Below are positions 8,657 through 60,032 of a DNA stretch of 64,000 bases, in pieces. The notes below the pieces were generated by a model, which was not told where the DNA came from, did no database searches, and worked only from the letters and a program-made list of their open reading frames with translations. The translations under genes were made by a program, and so were the position numbers. The stretch's first letter is position 1, and each line of letters starts with the position of its first letter. This stretch comes from a virus, in the IMG/VR virus record IMGVR_UViG_3300035438_000894, positions 1-64,000 of that record. The stretch is one strand, 5' to 3'.

Positions 8657-8743
8657 AGTCAGGTGGCGGAATTGGAGAGACGCAACTCTATTAAGGAGTG
8701 GAGATGAAATAAACTCATACAGGTTCGAATCCTGTCCTGACTA
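8657..8743 (+). tRNA. tRNA-Leu-like, type II (probable UAA anticodon)
   Basis: 87 nt with acceptor AGTCAGG/CCTGACT, a leucine-type D-arm GCGGAATTGG..GACGC, a long variable arm and a perfect T-arm ACAGG-TTCGAAT-CCTGT. The loop ATTAAGG would give UAA with U33 present, but the anticodon stem has two mismatches. No CCA is encoded, fitting the CCA-adding enzyme at 23.2 kb. This is the most regular tRNA in the cluster. Confidence 0.65.
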
Positions 8744-9018
8744 CGAATTAAAAAAAAAAATAACAAAGGTATTGACTTTTGGTGATGTTATGAGATATTT
8801 ATTATCTCACGGTTCGAGAGAACCAAAACACCCCAACAAAAGTTTCATAAAAAATTTGATAGTAACAAAACTATTACTTACCTTTGTGAAACATATATCC
8901 CACAGATGTATGTTCGAGAGAATTTATGTATGTGGGTTTTTTTTTTGAAAAAAGTTTGATTGGTGTTTGGATATTAAAAATAAAGTATTATCTTTGTACT
9001 CGAATTAAAACAAAAAAC
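8744..9018. other. Gene-free stretch with hairpins
   Basis: Contains a small structured element (about 8776-8830: hairpins GAGATATTTATTATCTC and GGTTCGAGAGAACC closed by TTTTGG/CCAAAA), a TACCTTTG promoter-like box near 8880, a terminator, and the TATCTTTG box at 8989-8996 of the next gene. No ORF is supported. Confidence 0.45.
8899..8947 (+). terminator. Long-stem terminator
   Basis: CCCACA ... TGTGGG with an intervening imperfect stem containing TTCGAGAGAA, followed by at least nine T residues. It closes a short transcript from the box near 8880. Confidence 0.7.
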
Positions 9019-10907: not shown

Positions 10908-10927
10908 GTTTATATCAATTTTTATAT

Positions 10928-10935
10928 TATCTTTG
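10928..10935 (+). promoter_or_regulatory. TATCTTTG box of smpB
   Basis: The box ends only 4 nt before the ATG, so the smpB transcript would be nearly leaderless. Confidence 0.7.
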
Positions 10936-10939
10936 CCTT

Positions 10940-11380
10940 ATGAAGAAGTCGATAAACATAATTAATAAGAAAGCCAGGTTTGAATATGAATTCCTCCAAA
11001 CAGATATTGTGGGAATTTCACTATTTGGTAGCGAGGTCAAATCCATCCGTCAGGGAAAAGTTTCTATCTCCGAAGGGTACTGTTACTTCAAGGACGGTGA
11101 GTTATTTGTTAAGGGGATGAATATCTCCGACTATGGGTTTGGTTCATTCCATGAGACTGTCAGGGACCGTAAACTACTATTGAAAAGAAAAGAGTTGAAT
11201 AGTTTGGAGTCAAAACTTATGAATGGTTTAACCATCGTTCCTTACCGGGTCTTCATCAATGAGAAGGGATTGATTAAAATGGAGATTGCTCTTGCCAAAG
11301 GTAAAAAGATTCATGATAAGAAAAATTCAATAAAAGAGAGAGATATTGACCGGGATATAAAAAGAGAAATAAATCGATAA
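10940..11380 (+). CDS. smpB: SsrA-binding protein SmpB
   Basis: A 146-aa SmpB homologue: N-terminal INIINKKARFEYEFLQT, GSEVKSIRQGKVSISEGYC, RDRKLLLKRKEL, then VPYRVFINEKGLIKMEIALAKGKK and a basic tail (HDKKNSIKERDIDRDIKREI). SmpB binds the tRNA-like part of tmRNA and rescues stalled ribosomes. It lies directly after the large RNA and near the tRNA cluster, so the phage appears to carry translation-support genes. I see no tmRNA in the window; it may use the host's. Start ATG 10940 is set by the promoter 5 nt upstream. Confidence 0.93.
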   Translation: MKKSINIINKKARFEYEFLQTDIVGISLFGSEVKSIRQGKVSISEGYCYFKDGELFVKGMNISDYGFGSFHETVRDRKLLLKRKELNSLESKLMNGLTIVPYRVFINEKGLIKMEIALAKGKKIHDKKNSIKERDIDRDIKREINR

Positions 11381-30879: not shown

Positions 30880-31277
30880 TCACATTACGGTGATATTTAA
30901 AACTTCATCTATTTTCCTTTTATCTTTCAATCGCGTCCCTATCGTCGTTGTAACACCACAATTCAATATTGACTCCACTAAGTGGTCTTTCAAGCCGTAA
31001 TCGGAAATAGTTGTTGTTACCCCACAATTTAATACTGACACCACCCATTCTTTTATAAGTGGTTCATATTCACTTCTCACCATACAAAATAATTGGAAAT
31101 AATCGTAAAAAAAATCCCATCTCCAACATAATGTACCATTTTTATGAAATTCCAAATACCAACATTTTTTTTCTCTGTCAATAAACCAAAGGGAATCTGC
31201 ATATAAAATCAATTCCACATGAGATAGGCATCGGTTAATTTATTAAAAATTAGTTGTTTTAGTTTATCTGTAATCAT
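30880..31277 (-). pseudogene. Frameshifted WFE-repeat gene
   Basis: An intact start (MITDKLKQLIFNKLTD) at 31277 is followed by a one-base deletion near 31228-31229 relative to the 39992 paralog, leading to a stop at 31209. The rest continues in another frame from 31218 (ELILYADSLWFIDREK...) and ends with three VESILNCGVTTT-type units. It is either a broken gene, a programmed frameshift or a sequencing error. It starts by ATGA overlap with the gene at 31274. Confidence 0.7.
30899..31044 (-). repeat. CRISPR-like in-gene repeats, two units plus remnant
   Basis: 36-nt units at 31009-31044 and 30943-30978 with a truncated third ending at 30912. The period is 66 nt, with two 30-nt variable segments. 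They are related to the 40 and 41 kb repeats. Confidence 0.6.
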
Positions 31278-31570
31278 CTGTATCTAAATTGTTCAAACCA
31301 TTTATTGAATGGTAAAGGTCTTGTTAACTCTACTTCTATACAATCCATAGTGTATTGATTGTACTCGTCAAATAATTTTTTATCTTGTTCTTGTTGCCAT
31401 TTAGTACCTAATTCAAATTGTCTTTTAAGTAATTCCATTTGAGGTTCTTTATCAAATGTTTTAGCTTTTTCTAATGGATATACATAAGTTAATTCAGCAT
31501 ATCTTTGTTTCGCTTCTTCAATCGTTTCTTTTTCCACACTATTTATTTTTAAATTGTTCATTTTTCCCAA
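31274..31570 (-). CDS. ETLEEA/WFEQF-family protein
   Basis: A 98-aa member of the family defined by an N-terminal (E)EAK-x-RY helix, F-x-x-G-x-KWQQE, and a C-terminal WFEQF. Here the usual FKKK end is replaced by FRYR, because the last codons come from the sequence (AATTTAGATACAGATGATTA) that also precedes the WFE-repeat genes at 41 kb. The start may be the fourth codon (31561). Confidence 0.75.
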   Translation of the reverse strand: MGKMNNLKINSVEKETIEEAKQRYAELTYVYPLEKAKTFDKEPQMELLKRQFELGTKWQQEQDKKLFDEYNQYTMDCIEVELTRPLPFNKWFEQFRYR

Positions 31571-31722
31571 ACTAATGTGCTTTCCTTATTATAAAGAGAA
31601 AAAGTCCAAAAAATATCTTTAGTGGAACAAGATAATAATTTATAACCTTGTCGAATTTTAGATTTGATATGTTCTTCTAAATCATAATTACCATCGTGTT
31701 TATAAACTTCCGTTTTAATCAT
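31558..31722 (-). CDS. Small hypothetical protein, 54 aa
   Basis: MIKTEVYKHDGNYDLEEHIK and onward, starting 1 nt after the upstream FKKK stop. The longer frame only translates the conserved 3' end of that upstream gene. Function unknown. Confidence 0.6.
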   Translation of the reverse strand: MIKTEVYKHDGNYDLEEHIKSKIRQGYKLLSCSTKDIFWTFSLYNKESTLVWEK

Positions 31723-31723
31723 A

Positions 31724-31957
31724 CTATTTCTTTTTAAATTTTTCAAACCATTCTTTTACATCAAAGCTATTACCTAATTTTAAAGATTGTAATTTCAACG
31801 TATGTTTATTGAAAGCGTTTAATAAAACAAAAACTTCTCCCTCACTATAACTATTTTGTTGTTGCCATTTAGCACCAAATTCTACTGCTAACTTGTATGA
31901 ATGAGGTAATGGAGAATCTAAATATCTTTCCTTTGCTTCTTCAAGTGTTTCTTTCAT
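31724..31957 (-). CDS. ETLEEA/WFEKF-family protein, 77 aa
   Basis: MKETLEEAKERYLDSPLPHS at the start; FGAKWQQQNSYSEGEVFVLL in the middle; KEWFEKF-KKK at the end. The stop is followed after one base by the next ATG, a junction repeated throughout this cluster. Confidence 0.75.
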   Translation of the reverse strand: MKETLEEAKERYLDSPLPHSYKLAVEFGAKWQQQNSYSEGEVFVLLNAFNKHTLKLQSLKLGNSFDVKEWFEKFKKK

Positions 31958-31968
31958 CTTATTTCTTT

Positions 31969-32067
31969 TTAAATTGTTAATATTCCAAATAATAAAAAAA
32001 CAAAAAAAACAATTAATCCACCATATACAACAATAGATAACCCCCATTCTTTTATAAATTTTTCCAT
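31969..32067 (-). CDS. Membrane microprotein, 32 aa
   Basis: MEKFIKEWGLSIVVYGGLIV then a phenylalanine-rich hydrophobic helix. It is too short for routine gene calling but fits the gap with the same stop/start spacing as its neighbours. Confidence 0.5.
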   Translation of the reverse strand: MEKFIKEWGLSIVVYGGLIVFFVFLLFGILTI

Positions 32068-32068
32068 C

Positions 32069-32188
32069 TTATTTCTTTTTTATTTTTTCAAACCAAAAAT
32101 CCACGCCATAGTTTATCAATAGTCCAGCAATTGTTAAAAACCCAATCATAAAAAAGAATATTACTATAACTTCTAATATTTTTCCCAT
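32069..32188 (-). CDS. Membrane microprotein ending WFEKIKKK, 39 aa
   Basis: MGKILEVIVIFFFMIGFLTI, one transmembrane helix, then DFWFEKIKKK, the C-terminus of the WFEQFKKK family. It appears to be a helix joined to the family tail. Confidence 0.55.
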   Translation of the reverse strand: MGKILEVIVIFFFMIGFLTIAGLLINYGVDFWFEKIKKK

Positions 32189-32189
32189 C

Positions 32190-32942
32190 TTATTTCTTTT
32201 TAAATTGTTCAAGCACTCTTTCTTTTATAAATTCTAGGTAGTCCCAATTATCATCTTTAAATTCAGACTTTATTTCAGCAATAAATAAATCTATTCCATC
32301 AGTATAACTTCTTTCTTGTTGTATCAATCCTAAATCACAATAAGTTGAATCCTCCCCTTCTTTTGGATATTCTCTTTCAGCAGCTTCTTCAAGTGTTTCT
32401 TGTTTTGGTTCTTCTTTCAAATCCATAAGGTTAAAAAACTCTTGGCTTACAATTTTTGAAAAATCCGTAGGTTCTTCTTTTGGAATGTAGTATTGACGAC
32501 TTTCAAATGTTTCTTTATAATGTAATTTATCAAAATCAAAATCTTCTTTTGGAATGATGATTTTGTATATCCAAGTGTGATATATGGTTTTATATCTTTC
32601 AGTTTTAACAAACTCACAACTTGGATTTTTTACAAACCACTCTAAAAATTCATCGTCAATAGCTTGTACACTATCTTTGATTAATTCTTGGTCTGTTGTT
32701 AGAATGATTTTTTTACAATCATTTCCAATAGGTCTATTATCGGCAATAATTATTTGCTTAATAAAATCATCATAATACCAATCTCCTTCTTTAATTTCTT
32801 CATCATTAGTGATGTAGATGTTTCTTCCCTCAACAATTGAATTTATACTTTTACTCAATTGTATTTTTGGACTGATAAATAATTCTGAATCAAAATGTAA
32901 CCTACTTGGGTTATCTGTTGGTATTACGTGTATGTTTTTCAT
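32190..32942 (-). CDS. Fusion of MKNIH-family and ETLEEA-family domains
   Basis: A 250-aa protein. Residues 1-150 are an MKNIH unit (MKNIHVIPTDNPSRL; NIYITNDEEIKEGDW; KKIILTTDQELI; DDEFLEWFVKNPSCE; YKIIIPKE). Residues about 185-250 are an ETLEEA unit (KQETLEEAAEREYP; IQQERSYTDGIDLF; VLEQFKKK). Both families also exist as separate genes, so this documents module fusion. Function unknown. Confidence 0.75.
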   Translation of the reverse strand: MKNIHVIPTDNPSRLHFDSELFISPKIQLSKSINSIVEGRNIYITNDEEIKEGDWYYDDFIKQIIIADNRPIGNDCKKIILTTDQELIKDSVQAIDDEFLEWFVKNPSCEFVKTERYKTIYHTWIYKIIIPKEDFDFDKLHYKETFESRQYYIPKEEPTDFSKIVSQEFFNLMDLKEEPKQETLEEAAEREYPKEGEDSTYCDLGLIQQERSYTDGIDLFIAEIKSEFKDDNWDYLEFIKERVLEQFKKK

Positions 32943-32946
32943 AATC

Positions 32947-33030
32947 CTATTTGTTTATTCCTATTGAAATTAATGTAATAATCGCTACTATATAAGCCAA
33001 GATGAAGGCTAAACATTCTTGATATTCCAT
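32947..33030 (-). CDS. Membrane microprotein, 27 aa
   Basis: MEYQECLAFILAYIVAIITL and SIGINK; a single hydrophobic helix. Supported only by composition and fit in the gap. Confidence 0.4.
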   Translation of the reverse strand: MEYQECLAFILAYIVAIITLISIGINK

Positions 33031-33043
33031 AACTTATTTGTTT

Positions 33044-33193
33044 TTAAAGGTTGTTAATTTTTTTAATTTTATTGTATAATTTCAAGTGTAACCCTTTAGG
33101 TTTAAATTCACTTAATTCAGCAAACCTAATGTGAGATTCATCTACTTTATTCCAACGACGTAGTATTACAAATCTTATAAAATCTTTTATCAT
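33044..33193 (-). CDS. Basic small protein, 49 aa
   Basis: MIKDFIRFVILRRWNKVDES and a basic end (KIKKINNL). It fits between the neighbours with short gaps. Unknown family. Confidence 0.5.
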   Translation of the reverse strand: MIKDFIRFVILRRWNKVDESHIRFAELSEFKPKGLHLKLYNKIKKINNL

Positions 33194-33196
33194 ATC

Positions 33197-33349
33197 TTAT
33201 TTGTTTTTAAATTGTTTGCATTTAACACCAATCATCCATCCAAATACTATTGGAGCAAATCTTCCTAATGGTATATATAAATATTCACTTGTATTCCAAA
33301 TACAACTACCTATAAATTGCAATGGTGTTTCTTCTTTCCAAAAAATCAT
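33197..33349 (-). CDS. Small protein ending KQFKNK, 50 aa
   Basis: MIFWKEETPLQFIGSCIWNT with a hydrophobic middle (FAPIVFGWMIGV) and a C-terminus like the FKKK tail of its neighbours. The stop precedes the next ATG by three bases. Confidence 0.5.
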   Translation of the reverse strand: MIFWKEETPLQFIGSCIWNTSEYLYIPLGRFAPIVFGWMIGVKCKQFKNK

Positions 33350-33350
33350 A

Positions 33351-33515
33351 TTAATAAAAATAAATTTTAATATTTTCTTTTCCTACCATATTTACTAAAT
33401 CTATTACTTTATTATAATTGCATCCTCTAATAAGGTCTTTACCATCTGATATCCTTACTACAACATATAAGTTACCTAACTTATTACGTTGTTCCATAAA
33501 TTCTTCATACGTCAT
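33351..33515 (-). CDS. Small hypothetical protein, 54 aa
   Basis: MTYEEFMEQRNKLGNLYVVV and onward; the longer reading frame upstream is only the out-of-frame tail of the neighbouring gene. Soluble; unknown function. Confidence 0.6.
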   Translation of the reverse strand: MTYEEFMEQRNKLGNLYVVVRISDGKDLIRGCNYNKVIDLVNMVGKENIKIYFY

Positions 33516-33519
33516 AATC

Positions 33520-33792
33520 TTATTTCTTTTTAAATTGTTCAAACCATTCTTTAAATAATTCATCTTTTCTATCAATAGAATCTATATCATTTATACCATA
33601 GCTTATTACAAATCCATTTTTAAATGCTATTTCTAAATCATCTTCACTATAACTTCTTTCTTGTTCCCATTTAGCACCTGCTGTAAACCCGCAAACAAAA
33701 TCAAATCTATTAGGTTCTAAAATACCTTTTCTAAATTCTTTAAAAGATTCTTCTCCTGCTATAAAAGCAGCTTCTTCAAGTGTTTCTTTCAT
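33520..33792 (-). CDS. ETLEEA/WFEQFKKK-family protein, 90 aa
   Basis: MKETLEEAAFIAGEESFKEF, then FTAGAKWEQERSYSEDDLEI, then KEWFEQFKKK. The KWQQERSYSEEEVL core defines the family. ATG at 33792 is one base after the upstream stop. Confidence 0.75.
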   Translation of the reverse strand: MKETLEEAAFIAGEESFKEFRKGILEPNRFDFVCGFTAGAKWEQERSYSEDDLEIAFKNGFVISYGINDIDSIDRKDELFKEWFEQFKKK

Positions 33793-33793
33793 C

Positions 33794-34339
33794 TTATTTC
33801 TTTTTATTTCGTTCAAACCATTCTTTAATTTGCAAAGGAACTATTCCTTGCTTGTTTTGTCTTTGAATTTCAACTGCAAAATGTGTTAATTTATTCAATA
33901 CTTCTTCCTCACTATAACTTCTTTCTTGTTGCCATTCAGCACCATTTATAAATGAATGATAATCAAAAAAAGCATTAGTAGTACTTAAATTATATCTTTC
34001 AGCAGCTTCTTTAAGTGTTTCTATTCCTTTACAAGTTTTTGTCAAATAACAAAGACATTCATCTGTACAAGTGCAATTTTCTTCAAGTGTTTCTTTTTTA
34101 GGTTCTCCCCAAATAACTTCTCCATCAATACTACTTTGAAGTAATACTTGTTCTTTAAATGGCTCTATACTCCTTATAATTTCTTTAATTTTAACCCAAT
34201 CTTTTTGAGCTAATTCAGTTCCTTTCCAATCTTCAAGGATAGCTATTACTTCTTCAGTAACATAAATAGCGTGATTTAAACCTAAATCCTGCACTAATTC
34301 TGCCGCTTTTTGACTTGTTGTCATTTTTTTTGTGTCCAT
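33794..34339 (-). CDS. Composite ETLEEA-family protein, 181 aa
   Basis: Residues 1-58 are a separate helical domain (MTTSQKAAELVQDLGLNHAI). Then comes a segment also found at the end of the 34692 gene (VLLQSSIDGEVIWG), then a cysteine-rich stretch (NCTCTDECLCYLTKTC) and an ETLEEA-type unit ending IKEWFERNKKK. The shared segment shows recombination between neighbours. Confidence 0.7.
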   Translation of the reverse strand: MDTKKMTTSQKAAELVQDLGLNHAIYVTEEVIAILEDWKGTELAQKDWVKIKEIIRSIEPFKEQVLLQSSIDGEVIWGEPKKETLEENCTCTDECLCYLTKTCKGIETLKEAAERYNLSTTNAFFDYHSFINGAEWQQERSYSEEEVLNKLTHFAVEIQRQNKQGIVPLQIKEWFERNKKK

Positions 34340-34691: not shown

Positions 34692-35198
34692 TCATTCATT
34701 GCAATTTTCATCTTCTGGTTTATCGCCCCAAATAACTTCTCCATCAATACTGCTTTGTAAAAGCACTTCTTCTTTTGGAATGATTATTTTGTAAAATATC
34801 TTATTAGATAATTTGTAATATACATCGTCTTTGTATATTCCGTGTTCAGCTTTATCAACCTTTACCTCCTCACAACTTGCGTTCTTAACAAACCATTCTA
34901 AAAACTCATCATCAATAGCTTGTACACCATCTAAGTCTTGGTCTGTTGTTAGGATTATTTTTTTAGCTTTTTGAATGTTATCTGCTAATATATAAGATAC
35001 TTGCCAAATATCTTTCCCATCAGTAACCCAATCATTAATGTCTAAATCTGAATCAGAAGTGATGTAGATGTTTTGATTTATACACCATCTTCCAAACTTT
35101 CTATCTTCAATGGGGTTGTATGTTATTACAAGAGGATTATCTATATGTTTATATAACCTACTTGGTTTTGGTGTTGGTATTACGTGTATGTTTTTCAT
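34692..35198 (-). CDS. MKNIH-family protein, 168 aa
   Basis: MKNIHVIPTPKPSRLYKHID; KKIILTTDQDLDGVQAIDDE; FLEWFVKNASCEEVKV; FYKIIIPKEEVLLQSSIDGE. The family's order is a short start motif, an IYITSD strand, an IILTTDQDL strand and the EFLEWFVKNPSCEEV helix. It overlaps the lipoprotein gene upstream by 41 nt. Confidence 0.75.
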   Translation of the reverse strand: MKNIHVIPTPKPSRLYKHIDNPLVITYNPIEDRKFGRWCINQNIYITSDSDLDINDWVTDGKDIWQVSYILADNIQKAKKIILTTDQDLDGVQAIDDEFLEWFVKNASCEEVKVDKAEHGIYKDDVYYKLSNKIFYKIIIPKEEVLLQSSIDGEVIWGDKPEDENCNE

Positions 35199-35469
35199 CT
35201 TGTATCTCTTTGTATTTCTGAATAATTAATAAACAACTATCTCCAACCTTCCATCTTCCTTCGTATTCAAATGGAATTTCAATCTCTTTCGTAACCTTGT
35301 CAGTTTGCACCCAAAGTTTAGGAAGTTCTGCAATTCTACCGCTATATCCTCTTTTAGTAGCTGAAACTTTACCATCAATTATTTCTTGACCTATATGTGT
35401 ATACTTTTGTTCGGTACAAGAAGTAAGTAGTAGTAGTAATGATAATATTAATATGTGTACGTTTTTCAT
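35158..35469 (-). CDS. Lipoprotein starting MKNVH, 103 aa
   Basis: A signal peptide MKNVHILILSLLLLLTSC with lipobox LLTSC at residue 18, then a beta-rich domain. Its first five codons mimic the MKNIH start of its neighbours, suggesting that the 5' end was copied or recombined. The start overlaps the upstream stop. Confidence 0.7.
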   Translation of the reverse strand: MKNVHILILSLLLLLTSCTEQKYTHIGQEIIDGKVSATKRGYSGRIAELPKLWVQTDKVTKEIEIPFEYEGRWKVGDSCLLIIQKYKEIQDEKHTRNTNTKTK

Positions 35470-36011
35470 AATGATTTTTTTAAAGGTTTAGGTTCTTCTT
35501 TTGGAATGTAGTATTGACGACTTTCAAATGTTTCTTTATAATGTAATTCATCAAAATCAAAATCTTCTTGTGGAGTGATGATTTTGTAAAAATTAGTTCC
35601 TTGAAGTAATTTACGTTTTTCAACCTCAACCTCCTCACAACTTGGATTCTTAACAAACCATTCTAAAAACTCATCAGGTATAGCTTGTACACCATCAGAA
35701 ATTAGAGCAGTATCTGTTGTTAGGATGATTTTTTTACACCAACCACCATTAGGGTAAGTGATAAGAGGTTCTTTTCTAACAATTTCTTCTGTAACTTTTA
35801 TGGGTTTAAAAACATTTCTTCTACCCATTTCCCCAACCGCATTGATTACATAACAATTACAATCTGTAATTTCTTCATCAGAAGTGATGTAGATGTTTTG
35901 TTTTTCCTTTTGATGTATTACGTCTTTAATATATAAACATAATTCTCCTGTTTCTTGTCCAATAAATAACCTACTTGGTTTATCTGTTCCTATAATGTGT
36001 ATGTTTTTCAT
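35466..36011 (-). CDS. MKNIH-family protein, 181 aa
   Basis: MKNIHIIGTDKPSRLFIGQE; NIYITSDEEI; KKIILTTDTALISDGVQAIP; DEFLEWFVKNPSCEEVEVEK; the KEEPKPLKKSL end. The ATG overlaps the preceding gene's TGA. At this junction the A-run upstream is one base shorter than at the fused junction in the next gene. Confidence 0.75.
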   Translation of the reverse strand: MKNIHIIGTDKPSRLFIGQETGELCLYIKDVIHQKEKQNIYITSDEEITDCNCYVINAVGEMGRRNVFKPIKVTEEIVRKEPLITYPNGGWCKKIILTTDTALISDGVQAIPDEFLEWFVKNPSCEEVEVEKRKLLQGTNFYKIITPQEDFDFDELHYKETFESRQYYIPKEEPKPLKKSL

Positions 36012-37564
36012 AATGATTTTTTTAAAGGTTTAGGTTCTTCTTTTGGAATGATGATTTTGTATTTGTAAGTTAAAATCATATCATTCAAAGATTTGGTTGA
36101 AATAAAACTTGGTGGGTCTTGTAAAGCATTAAATCTTATTTTTGGGTTTTTTGAAGAAATAAGCTCGTCTTCTATTTTTCTTACTTCAACCTCCTCACAG
36201 CTTGGATTCTTAACAAACCATTCTAAAAACTCATCATCAATATCTTGTACACCATCTTTGATTAAGTCTTGGTCTGTTGTTAGTGTGATTTTGAAAACCC
36301 CAGAATTTTCAATATTAGCTAATTCAATATCTCCTTTATTTTGAATTTTAACACAATGAATTATAGCACCTTGTGTATAAATCACCCAATCCCCTTCTTT
36401 AATTTCTACATCAGAAGTGATGTAGATGTTTTGATTCTGCCAAGTTTTATTATTTAACATCAAATCAGGGAGCCAAAGCAAAGTACCCTCTTTAAAATTA
36501 TTTGGAGCATTTTCTTCACTTCCATTTTCATCTATAAAAATATTAGATGTTCTTTTTAATAACCTACTTGGTTTATCTGTTCCTATAATGTGTATGTTTT
36601 TCATAATGATTTTTTTTAAAGGTTTAGGTTTTTCTTTTGGAATGATGATTTTATATACATAGGAATCAGTTTTTGAATGAAAACAATCATCAATATAATT
36701 ACCAAATTCATCGATATGTTGTGATTTTACTTCAACCTCCTCACAACTTGGATTCTTAACAAACCATTCTAAAAACTCATTTGGAATAGGTTGTACACCA
36801 TCTTTGATTAGGTCTACATCTGTTGTTAAGATGATTTTTTTACAGTTTTCATTCCAAACTTTGATATGATTGTTTATATTTTTAGCAATTTTATTTGTTC
36901 TTAAATCTATAATCCAACTACCATCTGCTTCTTTAATTTCTTCATCATTAGTGATTGAGATGTTTTGGTTTTTAAAATCATCGTTTCTACTTTGAATTGA
37001 AGTTTGTAACATTCCAAATACAAAGTTTCCATTATCTCCTGAATATAACCTACTTATTTTATCTGTTGGTATTACGTGTATGTTTTTCATAACTATATGT
37101 TTCTTTTTAGGTTCACTTAGAATGATGATTTTGTAATTAATTCTATGTGGAACAACTATTGGTTTATTGCCTTGATGTTGTACTAAAGGTTTATCTTGTA
37201 TAATTATCAATTTTTCATTGACCTCAACCTCCTCACAACTTGGATTATTAACAAACCATTCTAAGAACTCATCATCAATAGCTTGTACACCGATTAAGTC
37301 TTGGTCCGTGGTTAGGATGATTTTCTTTAACCAACTACTTAAATTAACATTCTTTTGTGAAATTATATCTTCACATTTATCAATGGTATTTTTTAAGGTG
37401 TTTAAATACCAATCATCTTCTTTAATTTCTTCATCAGAAGTGATGTAGATGTGTTGAAACTTAACATCATTACCTTTAATATTTGGTAATAAAAAATAAA
37501 ATCCTTCTTTTGTTAGATATAACCTACTTGGTTTATCTGTTCCTATAATGTGTATGTTTTTCAT
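36008..37564 (-). CDS. Triple tandem MKNIH-family fusion, 518 aa
   Basis: Three complete units in one frame, starting at residues 1, 159 and 321 (start codons equivalent to 37564, 37090 and 36604). Each has PTDK-x-SRL / GTDKPSRL, IxITxDEEIKE, KIILTTD and EFLEWFV-x-NPSCEEVEV. The second-to-third junction (KPLKKIIM) differs from the stop-containing KPLKKSL junction by one A in a run. A minus-strand TATCTTTG box lies at 37584-37591. Function unknown. Confidence 0.8.
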   Translation of the reverse strand: MKNIHIIGTDKPSRLYLTKEGFYFLLPNIKGNDVKFQHIYITSDEEIKEDDWYLNTLKNTIDKCEDIISQKNVNLSSWLKKIILTTDQDLIGVQAIDDEFLEWFVNNPSCEEVEVNEKLIIIQDKPLVQHQGNKPIVVPHRINYKIIILSEPKKKHIVMKNIHVIPTDKISRLYSGDNGNFVFGMLQTSIQSRNDDFKNQNISITNDEEIKEADGSWIIDLRTNKIAKNINNHIKVWNENCKKIILTTDVDLIKDGVQPIPNEFLEWFVKNPSCEEVEVKSQHIDEFGNYIDDCFHSKTDSYVYKIIIPKEKPKPLKKIIMKNIHIIGTDKPSRLLKRTSNIFIDENGSEENAPNNFKEGTLLWLPDLMLNNKTWQNQNIYITSDVEIKEGDWVIYTQGAIIHCVKIQNKGDIELANIENSGVFKITLTTDQDLIKDGVQDIDDEFLEWFVKNPSCEEVEVRKIEDELISSKNPKIRFNALQDPPSFISTKSLNDMILTYKYKIIIPKEEPKPLKKSL

Positions 37565-39991: not shown

Positions 39992-40663
39992 TTAACTACT
40001 CGGACTTAATGAGGAATTATTTAAGACTGACCCTACTGTATGAGCATACGCTCCATCTCCTGATTCTATTGTTATTACCTCACCATTTAGGACTGACTCC
40101 ACCAAGCGGGTGTTCGGCATGGAACTAAAATAAGTTGTTACCCCACCATTTAGGACTGACTCCACCGCTTGATTTTGCATCCAAACTTCTCCTACGGTTG
40201 TTGTTACCCCACCATTTAGGACTGACTCCACCCATGACAATAGTTCATGACACATAAGGGATGTTGTTGTTACCCCACCATTTAGGACTGACTCCACCCG
40301 TTTGATACAACCATTTTCGTTCCTCCATGTTGTTGTTACCCCACCATTTAGGACTGACTCCACCCCAACCCTTTTTTGCAAATTCAATAACGGTGTTGTT
40401 GTTACCCCACCATTTAGGACTGACTCCACCCATTCGGTGATAAGTGGTTCATATTCATCTCTTTCCATACAAAATAATTGGAAAAAATTGGAAAAAAATC
40501 CCCATCTCCAATATAATCTGCCGGACTTTTGAAATTCCAAATACCAATATTTGTTTTCTCTATCTATGAACCAAAAGGAATCTTCATATGAAATCAATTC
40601 CACATGAGATAGGTCATCGGTTAATTTATTAAAAATAAATTGTTTTAGTTTATCTGTAATCAT
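39992..40663 (-). CDS. WFE protein with seven CRISPR-like in-frame repeats
   Basis: A 223-aa protein. Residues 1-85 are the WFE domain (MITDKLKQFIFNKLTDDLSH; SFWFIDRENKYWYLEFQKSG; YEPLITEWVE). From about residue 78 the segment VESVLNGGVTTT recurs six times at 21-22-residue spacing, then a truncated VGSVLN unit; the 9-10 residues between are unrelated. At DNA level the 36-nt units are nearly identical. The start overlaps the upstream gene's stop region. See the array entry. Confidence 0.7.
   Translation of the reverse strand: MITDKLKQFIFNKLTDDLSHVELISYEDSFWFIDRENKYWYLEFQKSGRLYWRWGFFSNFFQLFCMERDEYEPLITEWVESVLNGGVTTTPLLNLQKRVGVESVLNGGVTTTWRNENGCIKRVESVLNGGVTTTSLMCHELLSWVESVLNGGVTTTVGEVWMQNQAVESVLNGGVTTYFSSMPNTRLVESVLNGEVITIESGDGAYAHTVGSVLNNSSLSPSS
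40019..40430 (-). repeat. CRISPR-like array inside coding sequence (six repeats plus terminal remnant)
   Basis: 36-nt repeats end (plus-strand right edges) at 40430, 40364, 40298, 40232, 40166 and 40103, with a truncated one at 40037. Four repeats are essentially identical (minus-strand sense GGTGGAGTCAGTCC...GGGGTAACAACAAC). Spacers are 30, 30, 30, 30, 27 and 30 nt and share no sequence. The last repeat has lost its 3' third. The geometry matches CRISPR arrays, but all units are in frame with the gene. Confidence 0.6.
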
Positions 40664-41121
40664 ATTGTTGTTCCATTATTTAATATTTCCTCCACACATT
40701 TGAGACCACGTATATGATTACTAATGGTTGCCGTGACACCTTTCTTTAATATATAACTCACCAAAAATCCGTCTTTATTTGCTCTATACGATGTTTTCAC
40801 TCCGCCATTTAGGACTTCTTCGATACCTACATGATTACCAATATTGATTTCAGTTGTTATTAACTCATGGTTTAATACTTTCTCTACCCATTCTAATATG
40901 ATTGGCTCGAATTGGTTTCTCTCCATCGTGAATAATTCAAAAAATTCAATAAAGAATTGCCATCTCCAATATAGTTCGCCTGAAGATTTAAATTCCAAAT
41001 ACCAATATTTTTTCTCTCGGTTAATAAACCAAAAGGAATCACGGTATGATATTATCTCAACATGGGATAAATCTTCACTCAATTTATCAAAAATTGTTCT
41101 TTTAAATTTATCTGTAATCAT
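40660..41121 (-). CDS. WFE protein with diverged repeats, 153 aa
   Basis: Residues 1-85 are the WFE domain (MITDKFKRTIFDKLSEDLSH; SFWFINREKKYWYLEFKSSG). Then four diverged units (VEKVLNHELITT, IEEVLNGGVKTS, VSYILKKGVTAT, VEEILNNGTTI) with 63-66-nt spacing (right edges 40887, 40824, 40761, 40695). DNA similarity among the units is low, unlike in the flanking paralogs, so this is an older or relaxed copy. Confidence 0.7.
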   Translation of the reverse strand: MITDKFKRTIFDKLSEDLSHVEIISYRDSFWFINREKKYWYLEFKSSGELYWRWQFFIEFFELFTMERNQFEPIILEWVEKVLNHELITTEINIGNHVGIEEVLNGGVKTSYRANKDGFLVSYILKKGVTATISNHIRGLKCVEEILNNGTTI

Positions 41122-41186
41122 CTGTATCTAAATTTTCATTCGGTTTATAAGGGGTGGGGATATAACTCCTCGGGATAAATAAGAGA

Positions 41187-41711
41187 TTATAATCCATTTA
41201 ATACTGACTCCACCTTTATTGCAACGGATAACTTAGATGGTACTGTTGTTGTCACCCCACAATTTAATGCTGACTCTACCAATAGTTTTTGGTGGAATTT
41301 CATCAACAACGTTGTTGTCACCCCACAATTTAATGCTGACTCTACCCATTTCAGTTTTTTGATGGTGCCTATTTGAGTTGTTGTGACCCCGCAATTTAAT
41401 GCTGACTCTACCGTCCATCCGGCGATTGAATCCTTGTTTACTGTTGTTGTAACCCCGCAATTTAATGCTGACTCTACCCATTCTTTTATAAGTGGTTCAT
41501 ATTCATTTCGTTCCATTGTGAATGGAGAGAAAAAATTAGTAAAGAATTGCCATCTCCAATATAATTTACCTGATTTTTCTAATTCCAAATACCAATACTT
41601 CTTTTCTCGGTTAATAAACCAAAGGGAGTCATTGTAGAAAATCAATTCCACATGAGATAGGTCATCGGTTAATTTATCAAAAATTGTTCTTTTAAATTTA
41701 TCTGTAATCAT
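41187..41711 (-). CDS. WFE protein with four in-frame repeats, 174 aa
   Basis: WFE domain (SLWFINREKKYWYLELEKSG), then VESALNCGVTTT four times and a truncated VESVLNGL. The start codon lies inside the stop region of the 41698 gene (GATGATTACAGATAA), so translation is coupled. Confidence 0.7.
   Translation of the reverse strand: MITDKFKRTIFDKLTDDLSHVELIFYNDSLWFINREKKYWYLELEKSGKLYWRWQFFTNFFSPFTMERNEYEPLIKEWVESALNCGVTTTVNKDSIAGWTVESALNCGVTTTQIGTIKKLKWVESALNCGVTTTLLMKFHQKLLVESALNCGVTTTVPSKLSVAIKVESVLNGL
41196..41478 (-). repeat. CRISPR-like array inside coding sequence (four repeats plus remnant)
   Basis: 36-nt repeats at 41443-41478, 41377-41412, 41311-41346 and 41245-41280, plus a truncated one ending at 41214. 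The period is exactly 66 nt with four unrelated 30-nt spacers. Minus-strand sense starts GGTAGAGTCAGCATTAAATT and ends GACAACAAC. The two right-hand repeats share a G variant absent from the two left-hand ones. Confidence 0.6.
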
Positions 41712-43752: not shown

Positions 43753-44301
43753 TCATATTTCACCGTTAGCGGGGTAGTTTAATTTGTAATGGTTTTCTAC
43801 CAAAGGTAAATCAACGATAAAACAACCGAAGGTTGTTGTTGACTTTAATTTGTGAAGTTCCTCCGGTGTAACATTTCCATAACGGTCATGTCTTGTTGTT
43901 GTTACGTTTAATCTGTGATGTTCCTCCACCTTGTCCCAGTGAACAAAGCAATTCGGCACGATTGTTGTTACGTTTAATCTGTGATGTTCCTCCACCAAGT
44001 CAATCAATTCTCCTCTTTCTTCGACCGTTGTTGTTACCTTAAATCTGTGATGCCCCTCCACCCATATTTTTGTTAGGTCTTGTACTTCCTGATAATTTAA
44101 TCCAAAAAAGGTTTCTAATAATGACCAAATTTTAGAATAAGAGATATAAACAACCCCATTTATTTTACTGTAATAATTAAGAACTTTCCCGTCTTTCATA
44201 AAGAATATATGCTCTTTCCAATCATCCGTTTCATAATCAACAATCCCGGAATATTCTTTATTTAGGTAGTTAATGATTCTATGCTTTAGTTTATCTGTCA
44301 T
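43753..44301 (-). CDS. WFE protein with HHRLNVTTT repeats, 182 aa
   Basis: Residues 1-95 are the WFE domain (MTDKLKHRIINYLNKEYSGI; WSLLETFFGLNYQEVQDLTK; IWVEGHHRFKVTTT). Four further units follow: VEEHHRLNVTTI, VEEHHRLNVTTT, PEELHKLKSTTT and a truncated VENHYKLN. The first unit is clearly the native C-terminus of the family, so the array appears to extend the gene's own end. Spacing is 21-22 residues. Confidence 0.7.
   Translation of the reverse strand: MTDKLKHRIINYLNKEYSGIVDYETDDWKEHIFFMKDGKVLNYYSKINGVVYISYSKIWSLLETFFGLNYQEVQDLTKIWVEGHHRFKVTTTVEERGELIDLVEEHHRLNVTTIVPNCFVHWDKVEEHHRLNVTTTRHDRYGNVTPEELHKLKSTTTFGCFIVDLPLVENHYKLNYPANGEI
43776..44061 (-). repeat. CRISPR-like array related to the nuclease-linked repeat
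   Basis: 36-nt units at 44026-44061, 43960-43995, 43894-43929 and 43831-43866 with a truncated one ending at 43800. Spacers are 30, 30, 27 and 30 nt. In minus-strand sense it starts GTGGAGGAACATCACAGATT and ends GTAACAACAAC. Allowing two gaps, about 26 of 36 positions match the repeat of the 57.4 kb array (GGAATCATCACAATTTGAAA ... GTCACAAC). Confidence 0.6.
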
Positions 44302-46838: not shown

Positions 46839-46883
46839 ATTATAAAAAAGTTATTAATTGTTTGGTGGGGTGAAAAATAATTG

Positions 46884-46891
46884 TATCTTTG
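46884..46891 (+). promoter_or_regulatory. Host-type TATCTTTG box
   Basis: Box 16 nt before the ATG of the next MKNIH-family gene; sets the start at 46908. Confidence 0.7.
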
Positions 46892-46907
46892 TAAAAAAAA
46901 TAAGGTT

Positions 46908-47900
46908 ATGAAAAACATACACTTAATACCAACAGATAAACCAAGTAGGTTTTGGATGACTAAATTAGGTAATCTAACAAGATGTCACGATATAAAACCT
47001 ATCAAAGAAGCATTAGGAAATAATGTAAACATCTACATCACTTCTGATGAAGAAATTAAAGAAGAAGGTTATGTTTTTTGGGAAGGTAAAGTTTACAAAT
47101 ACAGAGAATTTATGAAAATGAGAACTCCTGTATATACTAATTATTTTTCAATCATTCTTACAACAGACCAAGACCTTATTAAAGATGGTGTACAACCTAT
47201 TCCAAATGATTTTTTAGAATGGTTTGTTAAGAATCCAAATTGTGAGGAGGTTGAAATTGAAAAAGAATACAAACATTTTACTTCAGAATTATATGATTAC
47301 AAAATCATCATTCCAAAAGAAGAATGGAAATGTTGTGGTGCCTTCTATGGTTGTGATAAATGCGAACATAAAAAGGAATTAAGAGGAATACCTAAAGGTA
47401 AAATAGATATGGTAGTTGGTAAACCTAAACAATCAACTAAAGATAGAATCCTTTATGAAACACCTGAATCTATTAAACAAAAAGTAAGAGAAACTGCAAA
47501 CAAGTTAGTGAAACCTAAACAAGAACCTAAACCTTTTAAGGATATGCAACAATTAACAGAAGTTGATTTCTTAAATAAATCTTTAAAAAAAGGTATTGGA
47601 GTTAAAAGAGAATTTGTAATTAACACTTCTAAATGGAATTTGGAAGATTTTGAAGAAACTAAAGATTTAACATATTACAGAGCTAATGCCGAAGAAGATT
47701 ATATGAAAGTTCCAATCAGTGTATTGAGATATATTTCTGAACTTGAAAAAAGAAGTTATAGTGAGGAAGAAGTATTAGAATTACTACAAAATTTCAATCA
47801 AAATGCAATGGAATATATCAAAGAAGATGAAAAAAGTATTATGACATTTGTAACTTTGAAAAAATGGTTTGAACAATTTAAAAAGAAAATAAAGTTATGA
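46908..47900 (+). CDS. Long MKNIH-family protein with WFEQFKKK end, 330 aa
   Basis: Residues 1-148 are an MKNIH unit (MKNIHLIPTDKPSRFWMTKL; TTDQDLIKDGVQPIPNDFLE). The middle has CCGAFYGCDKCEHKK (four Cys) and repeated KQ/KP-rich linkers. The C-terminus carries the ETLEEA-family core (EKRSYSEEEVLELLQNF; KKWFEQFKKK). Another fusion of the two families. Function unknown. Confidence 0.75.
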   Translation: MKNIHLIPTDKPSRFWMTKLGNLTRCHDIKPIKEALGNNVNIYITSDEEIKEEGYVFWEGKVYKYREFMKMRTPVYTNYFSIILTTDQDLIKDGVQPIPNDFLEWFVKNPNCEEVEIEKEYKHFTSELYDYKIIIPKEEWKCCGAFYGCDKCEHKKELRGIPKGKIDMVVGKPKQSTKDRILYETPESIKQKVRETANKLVKPKQEPKPFKDMQQLTEVDFLNKSLKKGIGVKREFVINTSKWNLEDFEETKDLTYYRANAEEDYMKVPISVLRYISELEKRSYSEEEVLELLQNFNQNAMEYIKEDEKSIMTFVTLKKWFEQFKKKIKL

Positions 47901-48529
47901 AAAACATACACGTAATACCAACAGATAAACCAAGTAGGTTATCAAAATCTACATCAAAAGAAGAACTAACATTTTGTTCTGATATTTATAATTTATCTAA
48001 TAGACAACACATCTACATCACTTCTGATGAAGATATTAAATATGGAGATTGGTGTATTGATAAACATAATGTTGTTTATAAACAAGAAACTGATAAAATT
48101 TTTACAAAATTTAATGGTGCCAAAAAAATCATCCTAACAACAGACCAAGAATTAATCAATGATGGTGTACAAGCTATTGATAATGAGTTTTTAGAATGGT
48201 TTGTTAAAAATCCAAGTTGTGAGATGGTTAAGATTGATAGTTATAAAACCATATATCACACTTGGATATACAAAATCATCATTCCAAAAGAAGAACCTAA
48301 ACAAGAGCTTGAAAGAGGTATTACAATTACTCACGTTGGGAAACAAGAAACACCTACTGAATTAGATTCTGTTTTGGCTAAAATAACTCATATAAATGAT
48401 TTAGGTGTTTCTGAATGGTATGAGGTTGTTTATTATGCTGACGACAAATGGTGTTCATATAATGGTAGTAAAACTTTTGAGGATGGTGAGAGAGTTATAG
48501 AATGGAAATATTGTAAAGATTGTTTGTAA
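47897..48529 (+). CDS. MKNIH-family protein, 210 aa
   Basis: MKNIHVIPTDKPSRLSKSTS; QHIYITSDEDIKYGDW; KKIILTTDQELINDGVQAID; NEFLEWFVKNPSCEMVKI; then an extra C-terminal domain (KITHINDLGVSEWYEVVYYA). ATGA overlap with the upstream gene. Confidence 0.75.
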   Translation: MKNIHVIPTDKPSRLSKSTSKEELTFCSDIYNLSNRQHIYITSDEDIKYGDWCIDKHNVVYKQETDKIFTKFNGAKKIILTTDQELINDGVQAIDNEFLEWFVKNPSCEMVKIDSYKTIYHTWIYKIIIPKEEPKQELERGITITHVGKQETPTELDSVLAKITHINDLGVSEWYEVVYYADDKWCSYNGSKTFEDGERVIEWKYCKDCL

Positions 48530-55517: not shown

Positions 55518-55795
55518 TGGAAAAATTGGTTCATGAATATCTTAATTCTATTGTTGGTGATAACCCCACCTTATCGGTATCGAAAGAGAGTAACCATTTT
55601 GAGAGGGCGTTTAAGATGTTTAGTTATTATTATATTGTGAATGGAGTTAAGGTTGGTTCGAGACCACATAGTGTTAGTAAAATATCTATGAAGTCTGAGT
55701 TATACAATAGTATAAGAAAACTATTTGGATTAAATCATGTGGATACTTCACAATATTTTAATAATTGGTTAAATAATATCCCTGCTGATGAGTAA
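55517..55795 (+). CDS. WFE-family protein, 92 aa
   Basis: MEKLVHEYLNSIVGDNPTLS; YYIVNGVKVGSRPHSV; ELYNSIRKLFGLNHVDTSQY; FNNWLNNIPADE. No tag. It directly precedes the fourth repeated element and the nuclease locus. Confidence 0.7.
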   Translation: MEKLVHEYLNSIVGDNPTLSVSKESNHFERAFKMFSYYYIVNGVKVGSRPHSVSKISMKSELYNSIRKLFGLNHVDTSQYFNNWLNNIPADE

Positions 55796-55808
55796 TTCGT
55801 ATAGTGCT

Positions 55809-55857
55809 CTTCGTCCGGTTTCTCACTTCGTTCGAGGGAATCCCATTCCTTTTTTTC
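55809..55857 (+). repeat. TTCGTTCGATGGAATCCC element, copy 4
   Basis: CTTCGTCCGGTTTCTCACTT then CGTTCGAGGGAATCCCATTC and a T-run; it marks the left edge of the CRISPR/nuclease locus. Confidence 0.6.
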
Positions 55858-55889
55858 ATTATATATTTGGTGATTTGAATTCTTTGTTT

Positions 55890-55897
55890 TATATTTG
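55890..55897 (+). promoter_or_regulatory. Promoter of the TnpB/Cas12-like gene
   Basis: TATATTTG, a variant of the host box, 19 nt before ATG 55917. Its surroundings duplicate those of the promoter at 54439. Confidence 0.6.
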
Positions 55898-55916
55898 CTT
55901 TCTAAATAAATTATAT

Positions 55917-57119
55917 ATGAATCATTTTTTGGTTGAAAGAAAAAAGGGTCCATCTTATGTTGGAGTATCAGTTGAGTATAGGATATACCCGGATGATAAA
56001 CAAAAGAGATGGTTATTTGATATTGGTAATAAATTAAGAGGGGGATATAATCTTTTGGTTAGTGAATTTATTGATGGGAAAGATTTTAAGGACTTTCCTG
56101 CTCCGAACTTAAAGAGTAAATCTCTTTTCTCTAATTATCTTTCAACGATTAATTGGTTTGATAATGTTCCATCAATATTTAGGGAATATGTTTCTGAATC
56201 TTTGGTCACATCAATTAAAAATTTCAGAAAAAAACCAAAATCAAGAAAACCTTCGTATAAGAAAAAAACGAATATATTGAAATTAACGACTAATTCAAAT
56301 AGTATTAGTCGTGGAAGTTTAAGTTTGGATTGGGATAATAATGAAATTAGGTTTGCTCCTACTTTACTTAAAAAAGTTGGGATAAATCCAATTATAAAAT
56401 GTAAGTTTCATAAACAATTCAAAGGGTCTACACCAAAGTTAATGTCAATCCATAGGAAGTCTGATGGTAATTGGTATTTATCTTTAACATTGGATTTAAA
56501 GGATACTGAAATTGTTAAGATTAATAGTTCGGGTAAATCATTGGGAATTGATGTAGGTATTAAAGATATGGCAATTACATCCGAAGGACTTAAATATCAG
56601 GTACCAATTGAGAGGATTAAAAAATTGGAAGATAAGATTTCAATTATTCAAAAGAGTATATCTCGTAAGAACAGATTAAACAAGGGTAAACCTAAATCCA
56701 AAAATTATTGGAGAGTAATTGAGAAGAAGGGTAGATTACAGAATGAATTAAATAATATTAGAAAAGAATATCACAGATATGTTGTTGGTGTTTTAACTAA
56801 AGGTAAGTTTTCTAAAATACAAGTTGAGGATATTCGTTTGTCATTTATGTTACAGAATAAACATATGGCTAAATCCACTGCAAGAATCGGGATTCGTTCA
56901 TTTGTCGATTATTTGGGAAGTGTTTGTAATTCAAAAGGAATTGAATTTAATAGGATTGACCCCCGTAATACAAGTAAGACTTGTTCTAACTGTGGGGATA
57001 TAAATACTGAGTTAAAGTTATCCCAAAGGGAATGGACCTGTAAGTCTTGTGAGGAACACCACGATAGAGATATAAACGCAGCAAAAAATATCAGAGAAAG
57101 TTTGTTAGTTAGAGAATAA
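55917..57119 (+). CDS. TnpB/Cas12f-like RuvC nuclease, 400 aa
   Basis: Residues about 14-50 hold the TnpB N-terminal signature (VGVSVEYRIYPDDKQKRWLF). RuvC-I is LGIDVGIKDMA with D212; RuvC-II is KIQVEDIR with E304; a zinc ribbon uses C356, C359, C375 and C378; RuvC-III is HDRDINAAKNI with D383/D385. All catalytic residues are present. Length fits TnpB and the smallest Cas12f proteins. No TnpA or IS200/IS605 ends are seen. On the same strand, 5 nt after the stop, begins a promoter leading to a guide-like RNA region and a CRISPR array. I infer an RNA-guided DNA nuclease. ATG 55917 follows the promoter; the longer frame would run through it. Confidence 0.9.
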   Translation: MNHFLVERKKGPSYVGVSVEYRIYPDDKQKRWLFDIGNKLRGGYNLLVSEFIDGKDFKDFPAPNLKSKSLFSNYLSTINWFDNVPSIFREYVSESLVTSIKNFRKKPKSRKPSYKKKTNILKLTTNSNSISRGSLSLDWDNNEIRFAPTLLKKVGINPIIKCKFHKQFKGSTPKLMSIHRKSDGNWYLSLTLDLKDTEIVKINSSGKSLGIDVGIKDMAITSEGLKYQVPIERIKKLEDKISIIQKSISRKNRLNKGKPKSKNYWRVIEKKGRLQNELNNIRKEYHRYVVGVLTKGKFSKIQVEDIRLSFMLQNKHMAKSTARIGIRSFVDYLGSVCNSKGIEFNRIDPRNTSKTCSNCGDINTELKLSQREWTCKSCEEHHDRDINAAKNIRESLLVRE

Positions 57120-58804: not shown

Positions 58805-59086
58805 ATGGATGGATTAACAATTGGTGTAACGTGGAGACGTGAAAACGATAGAAACTACTTTGACATTGGATTCCCAAAAGACCAAGAGGCATTATCTGTT
58901 AAGGAATCAACAATGATGTTGGCTGCGGGTATGTCTTTATTAATGAAGGCTGGACATAAAAACGGAGATTTTAAAGATTACGAGATGATGGAACATGTAA
59001 TTAATTATTTGAAAAGTGAGTTTGTATCCACAGAATCTTTTGAAGATGCTGAGATTCAACCAAATATATTTAAAAATAATGTCTAA
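58805..59086 (+). CDS. Hypothetical protein, 93 aa
   Basis: MDGLTIGVTWRRENDRNYFD and onward; TATCTTTG box at 58778-58785. A helical middle (STMMLAAGMSLLMKAGHKNG). It overlaps the start of the next gene. Confidence 0.7.
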   Translation: MDGLTIGVTWRRENDRNYFDIGFPKDQEALSVKESTMMLAAGMSLLMKAGHKNGDFKDYEMMEHVINYLKSEFVSTESFEDAEIQPNIFKNNV

Positions 59087-60032
59087 TAAAAAGATTATGG
59101 GAAAAATAATAAACACCTTAATTAATTCTTCTGTCCAAGGTGTTGACACATATAATCATAATGGTTCCACTTGGTTAATCTTTACGGAGTCCAAACAATG
59201 GGTGATAGAATTAACTGAAAGTAAAACCCTGTGGTATAATTTTAATTTCTTTAAAAATCTTTTTGGGTATGCCTCATTGGAGGTTGTTCAAAACCAACAC
59301 CTCATCACAAAATGGGTAGAAGATAATGTAATGAATGGTTCTAAGAATACCGCGTCACCATCTCAAACACCATCATATAATCTGATGGAGGTTTTTGAGA
59401 ATGGGATTAAAGAAACTTGTTGGAACCCGGAAGATAATACAAGTTGGGTTGAAAATGTTATTAAAGGCGGAGTAAAAGAAACCTGTTTGGAAATGAACAT
59501 TACTGAAGGTGAGGTTGATGACATCATACAAGATGGTGTGAAGAAAACTAAAGGGGTGAAACTAACCAACAAATCATTACAAATGGATGGTTCTTGTGTT
59601 ATTGAAATTGTCATACAAGATGGAGTGAAAATGACTTCAAAATTAGAATCTCGTGAATATACCGGAGACATTGATGATGCACTTGAAAATGGTGTTAAAA
59701 GTTCTAACCCACGACAATATGTGGGAGAAGACATAATTGATAAGGTGATTGACAAGGGTGTTAATGAAACTTACTATGATGTATATCAACACAAAGGAAG
59801 AATTGATGGTGTGATTAAAAATGGAGTTAAAAAAACAAAAAAATTGAATGAGGTCGTTGTTGATTGGATTGGTGATATAATTGAGAATGGTGTAAAAGAA
59901 ATAAAACCATTACCAGACCAAAGTGGAGAACTAATAGGTTATGGTAATTATTATCACGGTAAAGAAGATAGAACAAAAGCTTTTATAGATTATCTTGAGG
60001 AAACACTTGAGAAGGGTGTTAAAATTAATTAG
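59079..60032 (+). CDS. WFE protein with about ten diverged protein repeats, 317 aa
   Basis: Residues 1-80 are the WFE domain (MSNKKIMGKIINTLINSSVQ; STWLIFTESKQWVIELTESK; HLITKWVEDNVMNG). About ten units follow with the pattern (V/I)-x-x-(V/I)-I-x-x-GVK-x-T, such as VENVIKGGVKETC, VDDIIQDGVKKTK, IDGVIKNGVKKTK, IGDIIENGVKEIK, mostly 21-23 residues apart. The DNA of the units is well diverged although the peptide is conserved, unlike the 40-44 kb arrays. ATG 59079 matches paralog length; ATG 59097 is possible. Confidence 0.75.
   Translation: MSNKKIMGKIINTLINSSVQGVDTYNHNGSTWLIFTESKQWVIELTESKTLWYNFNFFKNLFGYASLEVVQNQHLITKWVEDNVMNGSKNTASPSQTPSYNLMEVFENGIKETCWNPEDNTSWVENVIKGGVKETCLEMNITEGEVDDIIQDGVKKTKGVKLTNKSLQMDGSCVIEIVIQDGVKMTSKLESREYTGDIDDALENGVKSSNPRQYVGEDIIDKVIDKGVNETYYDVYQHKGRIDGVIKNGVKKTKKLNEVVVDWIGDIIENGVKEIKPLPDQSGELIGYGNYYHGKEDRTKAFIDYLEETLEKGVKIN

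What the first reader, a model, noticed from the sequence alone, without database searches (positions are those of the whole stretch)
36008..37564. Triple gene fusion set by one base in an A-run
Between single MKNIH genes the end reads KPLKKSL-stop with the next ATG overlapping; at 36604 the A-run is one base longer, so the frame reads KPLKKII-M and the units fuse. Slippage in the A-run could switch between separate and fused proteins.
Basis: seen in the sequence. Interest (0 to 1): 0.58.

Follow-up and report, generated by a model that had tools for sequence, protein, structure and literature searches.

The report
Phage repeat genes fused by one base
In a large virus of Bacteroidota-type bacteria, three neighbouring copies of an unknown gene read as one long gene, one joint being open because an A-run is a base longer than in its sister copies; this looks like an ordinary, fixed small mutation rather than a switch.

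Summary
The sequence observation is right. On the minus strand, ORF 36008-37564 (518 aa) holds three MKNIH units. The joint at 36604 has an A8 run (KPLKKII-M); the next two junctions (36011, 35469) have A7 and end KPLKKSL-stop with a 4-nt ATGA overlap. It is incomplete: the other fused joint (37090) has no long A-run, so one base does not set the triple fusion.

The switching reading is not supported. A second IMG/VR assembly is identical over 40,520 bp, A8/A7/A7 included. Among 211 distinct unit sequences only this ORF holds more than one unit. A7+ runs are common in this AT-rich genome (50 in predicted coding sequence of 64 kb), and long runs are not conserved at relatives' ATGA overlaps. 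No RNA structure stimulates frameshifting. After the third copy lies a putative lipoprotein, whose signal peptide a fusion would bury.

Best reading: the A-run is the A-rich start leader that Bacteroidota ribosomes use instead of Shine-Dalgarno. One copy gained an A, turning a coupled overlap into a fixed fusion, probably with unit 3 still started internally. Read-level run lengths could not be checked.

The parts
36008..37564 (-). fused ORF, 518 aa, three MKNIH units
   Evidence: three HMM domain hits in one open frame
37091..37564 (-). unit 1
   Evidence: alignment A1
36605..37090 (-). unit 2; its in-frame joint with unit 1 has no long A-run (EPKKKHIV-M)
36008..36604 (-). unit 3 with stop codon
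36610..36617 (-). A8 run at the fused u2/u3 joint
36017..36023 (-). A7 run before the KSL-stop/ATGA overlap u3/u4
35466..36011 (-). unit 4, separate gene (181 aa), 4-nt ATGA overlap with unit 3
35475..35481 (-). A7 run before the KSL-stop/ATGA overlap u4/lipoprotein
35158..35469 (-). putative lipoprotein gene beginning MKNVHILILSLLLLLTSC, overlapping the end of unit 4 by 4 nt; no Pfam hit
   Evidence: lipobox recognised by eye (recall)
34692..35198 (-). further MKNIH unit, separate gene
32190..32942 (-). MKNIH unit with the usual C-terminal module (ETLEEAAE...EQFKKK-stop)
46881..47900 (+). MKNIH unit plus C-module ending EQFKKKIKL-stop in an ATGA overlap
47897..48529 (+). MKNIH unit downstream of that overlap

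Best explanation
This is a tandem array of a poorly characterised phage gene family (MKNIH units), several of whose genes meet at 4-nt ATGA stop/start overlaps. The A-run before each ATG is the A-rich leader from which ribosomes of Bacteroidota start (shown: the sequence fits; inferred: the host). The same ~60-nt junction is present in three near-identical copies. One copy carries one more A, which moves the upstream frame past its TGA into the next ATG, so units 2 and 3 are one ORF. Unit 1 joined through a different, stop-less junction. The state is most likely fixed in this phage clone. The fused joint keeps all four start-favouring adenines, so unit 3 is probably also made alone by internal initiation (inferred). 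Unit function is unknown; it is predicted to be a small beta-rich domain.
For: Two assemblies identical at all run lengths over 40,520 bp. Junction copies nearly identical: 99 aligned positions with 2 mismatches and 1 gap between u2/u3 and u3/u4 (sequences). Among 211 distinct unit sequences only this ORF has more than one unit. A relative sharing an 88.7% identical 1.3-kb neighbouring block keeps its units as separate genes, two of them reached by KKKSL-stop/ATGA overlaps. 28 of 182 distinct unit starts lie in ATGA overlaps, so many junctions are one base from fusion. Fusions of other heads to a unit exist elsewhere: L074 (52-aa head, RKII-M) and L308 (head that stands alone as a 54-aa ORF in this window). 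Start context: A at -3, -6, -12, -13 at the A8 joint, 4 of 4; 173 unit starts have A there in 67/68/83/72% against 33-34% for 8510 internal Met codons; these are the positions that raise translation in F. johnsoniae (PMC6847099 passages). ATGA overlaps are a known coupling arrangement (PMC6728339 passages).
Against: Assemblies show only consensus, and two identical contigs may come from related samples or shared reads. A third contig of the same phage (G002) breaks inside the array, at 34928 and 40394, which repeats explain but population variation could too. Runs of A8 or more are rarer in coding sequence than in synonymous shuffles (15 against 26.8 +/- 3.4), so A8 is probably somewhat costly here, as a slip-prone run would be. 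No protein or RNA data; the host is inferred.
Confidence: 0.72

Rival explanations
1. Replication slippage in the A-run makes the junction a phase-variable switch between separate and fused proteins.
For: A7 and A8 both occur in near-identical junction copies. A related leader is read in the fused frame in L074 and in the separate frame twice in G003.
Against: Same lengths in both assemblies holding the array. 2 of 28 ATGA-overlap unit starts have A7 and none longer, so no conserved tract. At the third copy fusion would bury a putative signal peptide. One of the two fusions does not use an A-run. 50 coding A-runs of 7 or more in 64 kb make this run unremarkable.
Confidence: 0.08
2. At the A7 copies RNA polymerase or the ribosome slips by one, giving a minor share of fused protein from genes that look separate; the A8 copy is the fixed version.
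For: The A7 copies read CCT TTA AAA AAA TCA TTA TGA, i.e. T-TTA-AAA and A-AAA-AAA in the slip-prone phase (motif knowledge recalled); a -1 shift would give the same peptide as A8.
Against: No stable RNA downstream: z 0.85, 0.05, 0.53. The slip motif is not kept in the related KKKSL-stop junctions, which read AAAAAGAAATCATT. Selection against slippage is in many genomes seen at nine A/T (PMC1088944 passages).
Confidence: 0.12
3. The extra A is a sequencing or assembly error and the real phage has A7 here too.
For: Homopolymers are error-prone (general knowledge), and the units are repeats that break assemblies (G002 ends inside the array).
Against: Two differently delimited IMG/VR records agree, with no difference over 40,520 bp, while the A7 copies in the same contigs stay A7. 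The unit 1/unit 2 fusion would remain.
Confidence: 0.06

Closest known systems
ATGA-overlapping, translationally coupled gene pairs (PMC6728339; start of abstract and passages seen)
   Same: Units 3/4 and unit 4/lipoprotein share ATGA; 28 of 182 related unit starts do too.
   Different: At 36604 the stop is lost by one extra base, giving a fusion; coupling itself was not measured.
Frame-transition genes with poly-A/T: indel, phase variation or recoding (PMC3711429; passages seen)
   Same: A poly-A run of at least 7 nt at a transition between adjacent reading frames.
   Different: Paralogous whole units are joined, not one gene split; no set of orthologues with the same transition was found.
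Transcriptional slippage on A/T runs in bacteria (PMC1088944; passages seen)
   Same: An A-run in coding sequence where one base changes the product.
   Different: A7-A8 rather than the nine typical there; the run is not conserved at homologous junctions.
PHROG 15656 (unknown function)
   Same: Best family match of the fused protein, E 2.2e-13.
   Different: Function unknown; weak for the four single-unit proteins scanned that matched (1.4e-4, 0.068, 1.9e-4; the fifth protein of that call is not a unit).

Membership tests
Phase-variable (contingency) locus | run length varies within or between closely related populations | tested here: inconclusive
   2 of 2 assemblies with the array identical; no reads available
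Phase-variable (contingency) locus | tract kept at homologous junctions | tested here: not met
   A7 in 2 of 28 ATGA-overlap starts, none longer; related junctions read AAAAAGAAATCATT
Programmed -1 ribosomal frameshift | slip-prone heptamer in the zero frame before the stop | tested here: met
   CCT TTA AAA AAA TCA TTA TGA at the A7 copies; motif definition recalled
Programmed -1 ribosomal frameshift | stimulatory RNA structure downstream | tested here: not met
   z 0.85, 0.05, 0.53
Programmed -1 ribosomal frameshift | fused product from the A7 junctions | not testable with these tools
   needs proteomics or a reporter
Transcriptional slippage site | run at or above the length avoided in the genome's genes | tested here: inconclusive
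   A8 or more depleted, 15 against 26.8 +/- 3.4; A7 or more 50 against 59.2 +/- 5.1
ATGA-coupled gene pair (u3/u4, u4/lipoprotein) | 4-nt stop/start overlap on the same strand | tested here: met
ATGA-coupled gene pair (u3/u4, u4/lipoprotein) | downstream translation depends on upstream translation | not testable with these tools
   needs a reporter
In-frame gene fusion (u1/u2/u3) | full domains open in one frame without stop | tested here: met
   three full-length domain hits in one frame

The most novel reading that the evidence does not exclude
The ATCATTATG leader of MKNIH-type phage genes is a mobile frame toggle: when it lands behind another gene, the length of the A tract in front sets whether the genes are coupled or fused, and slippage lets the phage sample both, building multi-domain proteins from a shuffled pool of units.
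Probability: 0.06. Interest if true: 0.6.

Novelty: new member of a known kind. Interest (0 to 1): 0.2.

Why it matters
It gives three near-identical natural junctions, two separate and one fused, in one phage: a tidy set for testing how Bacteroidota ribosomes handle ATGA overlaps and internal A-rich starts. It also shows how phage paralogue arrays can make multi-domain proteins by one-base changes. As a claimed switch it currently has no support.

Tried and rejected
Function of the unit: Pfam gave no match above its cut-off for five proteins of the region. A PDB sequence search with the 77-row profile gave only two matches, E 0.33 and 0.45. The AlphaFold model (mean pLDDT 75, pTM 0.62) has no PDB match at E <= 0.001 and 5 BFVD matches at that level, all uncharacterised phage proteins, one from Tenacibaculum phage PTm1. 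tblastn and blastn against 50,697 phage records gave no match. The genome-contig scan gave 3 loci, 2 of them in a Flavobacterium MAG and 1 in a Candidatus Cloacimonadota MAG.

A scan for CCTAAACCTTTAAAAA returned 96 stretches; its listing shows three sites in L011, and the loci held from it were included in the unit count. L012 shows no family member in its ORF list. In one search, 181 distinct FKKK-type gene ends were counted: 156 stop at once, 149 have a gene start within 40 nt, and 2 were flagged as in-frame fusion. One of these (L201) appears to lie inside a longer gene and the other (L341) has only 42 open codons upstream, so I draw no rate from them. In one search six starts have 45 or more open in-frame codons upstream; besides the two here, L308 and L074, I did not examine L240 (46) and L367 (49).

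Considered and rejected: the array break in G002 as proof of variation, since both ends lie in sequence that is repeated nearby. Literature searches for slippage-made gene fusions and for tandem paralogues in Flavobacterium jumbo phages listed no paper on this array; there I saw only listings with the starts of abstracts. Beyond listings I read passages of PMC6847099, PMC1088944, PMC3711429 and PMC6728339.

Full report
What is there. The window is the first 64,000 bases of a 117,358-bp IMG/VR virus record. Two further records carry the same phage. G001 (159,920 bp) is identical to the window over 40,520 bp. G002 (309,177 bp) is identical over 34,928 bp on one side and over the 20,000 bp compared on the other, but breaks between window positions 34928 and 40394. 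The genome is therefore probably over 300 kb (inference from lengths). Relatives of the unit occur in a Flavobacterium MAG and, by fold, in a Tenacibaculum phage, so a Bacteroidota host is likely but not shown.

The array. On the minus strand between 37564 and 34692 lie five MKNIH units and one putative lipoprotein gene; three more unit genes lie at 32190-32942, 46881-47900 and 47897-48529. Units are about 50% identical to one another. In relatives the unit is usually the N-terminal part of a longer protein, often ending ...EQFKKK-stop; units 1-4 here end soon after the domain.

The junctions. Units 1, 2 and 3 are open in one frame (518 aa). Unit 1 to unit 2 passes through CCTAAAAAGAAACATATAGTTATG with no long A-run. 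Unit 2 to unit 3 passes through CCTTT, eight A, TCATTATG. Unit 3 to unit 4 and unit 4 to the lipoprotein pass through the same sequence with seven A, which ends in TGA inside ATGA. The u2/u3 and u3/u4 junctions differ by 2 mismatches and 1 gap over 99 positions. They are copies of one another, and one base separates the two states. Which length came first is not proven. Two of three copies are A7, and the related leader in G003 also ends in KKKSL-TGA/ATGA at both of its sites, so A7 as the older state is the simpler reading.

Is it special? A search of 384 held sequences (many overlapping or repeated) found 378 domain hits in 364 ORFs, 211 distinct domain sequences; only this ORF, seen again in refetched copies and in G001, has more than one unit. 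Of 182 distinct unit starts, 79 have no upstream ORF of 70 aa or more ending within 60 nt, 28 lie in an ATGA overlap, 48 have gaps of 7 nt or less, 20 larger gaps and 7 longer overlaps. Fusion of something onto a unit is seen in two other phages: L074, through the same ATCATTATG leader, and L308, by another sequence. The L308 head has an 86% identical stand-alone counterpart, a 54-aa ORF in this window; no stand-alone copy of the L074 head was found. So unit fusion is rare but not unique. In the exact-pattern scan of the viral collection for AAATCATTATGAAAAAYATHCA, 7 sites were found; 5 precede family members, 3 separate (one here, two in G003) and 2 fused (here and L395, the contig of L074).

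Is the A-run a slippage element? In predicted coding sequence of the window there are 50 A-runs of 7 or more and 15 of 8 or more; synonymous shuffles give 59.2 +/- 5.1 and 26.8 +/- 3.4. Such runs are common, and A8 is somewhat avoided. That fits mild selection against slip-prone runs and is the best point in favour of some slipping. But a functional tract should be kept: among the 28 ATGA-overlap starts the longest A-run in the 25 nt before ATG is 7 in two cases and shorter in the rest, and the related junctions are interrupted by G (AAAAAGAAATCATT). Downstream RNA is no more stable than shuffles (z 0.85, 0.05, 0.53). In print, selection against A/T runs becomes evident at nine in many bacteria, with variation between genomes (PMC1088944 passages). 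At the third A7 copy the next gene is a putative lipoprotein; fusion would put its signal peptide inside a longer protein. That argues against a general fuse/separate switch at this junction type.

A simpler role for the A-run. In F. johnsoniae, adenines at -3, -6, -12 and -13 raise initiation in place of Shine-Dalgarno (PMC6847099 passages). Unit starts have A at these positions in 67, 68, 83 and 72% of 173 cases; internal Met codons in 33-34% of 8510. The A8 joint has all four, the A7 joints three, the 37090 joint two. The A-run is thus best read as part of the start signal of the next gene. It follows, as inference, that unit 3 can still be started internally in the A8 copy, so the cell may hold both the fused protein and unit 3 alone without any slippage.

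Error? Two records agree at all three runs. They may share samples or reads, so this is moderate evidence only.

Verdict. A real one-base difference, correctly seen, in a real array of paralogous phage genes; most likely a fixed indel fusion at a coupled overlap. The switch is an untested possibility with evidence mostly against it. The unit's function stays unknown: beta-rich model of moderate confidence, no solved relative.

Noticed in passing
39992-41711 (minus), also 30880-31218, 43753-44301, 59016-60032: A second gene family (MITDKFK/WYLEF head) carries tails of 22-aa repeats whose DNA is a ~36-nt conserved repeat plus ~30-nt variable stretch, period 66, in reading frame, resembling a CRISPR array in layout; contigs G001 and G002 of the same phage both end in or beside it. 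Membership of the last three places is by eye.
   Followed up: partly
10880-11380 (+): Phage-encoded SmpB (Pfam PF01668, E 2e-47); ARAGORN found no tmRNA in the window.
   Followed up: partly
55788-57119 (+): TnpB-like protein (Cas12f1-like TNB domain, E 2.5e-20).
   Followed up: no
8657-8744 (+): ARAGORN calls a tRNA with a four-base anticodon (aagg), between two tRNA-Pro genes; may be a false call.
   Followed up: no
31274-34339 (minus); L407: Many genes end GAACAATTTAAAAAGAAATAAGATG or similar, and the next gene's frame is open back through this string to a TTG (LNNLKRNKM...), suggesting a shared recombination boundary between gene modules.
   Followed up: partly
46881-47900 (+): The gene ends EQFKKKIKL-stop: compared with the usual FKKK-TAA end it reads as if one extra A carried the frame past the TAA to a TGA in ATGA.
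   Followed up: partly
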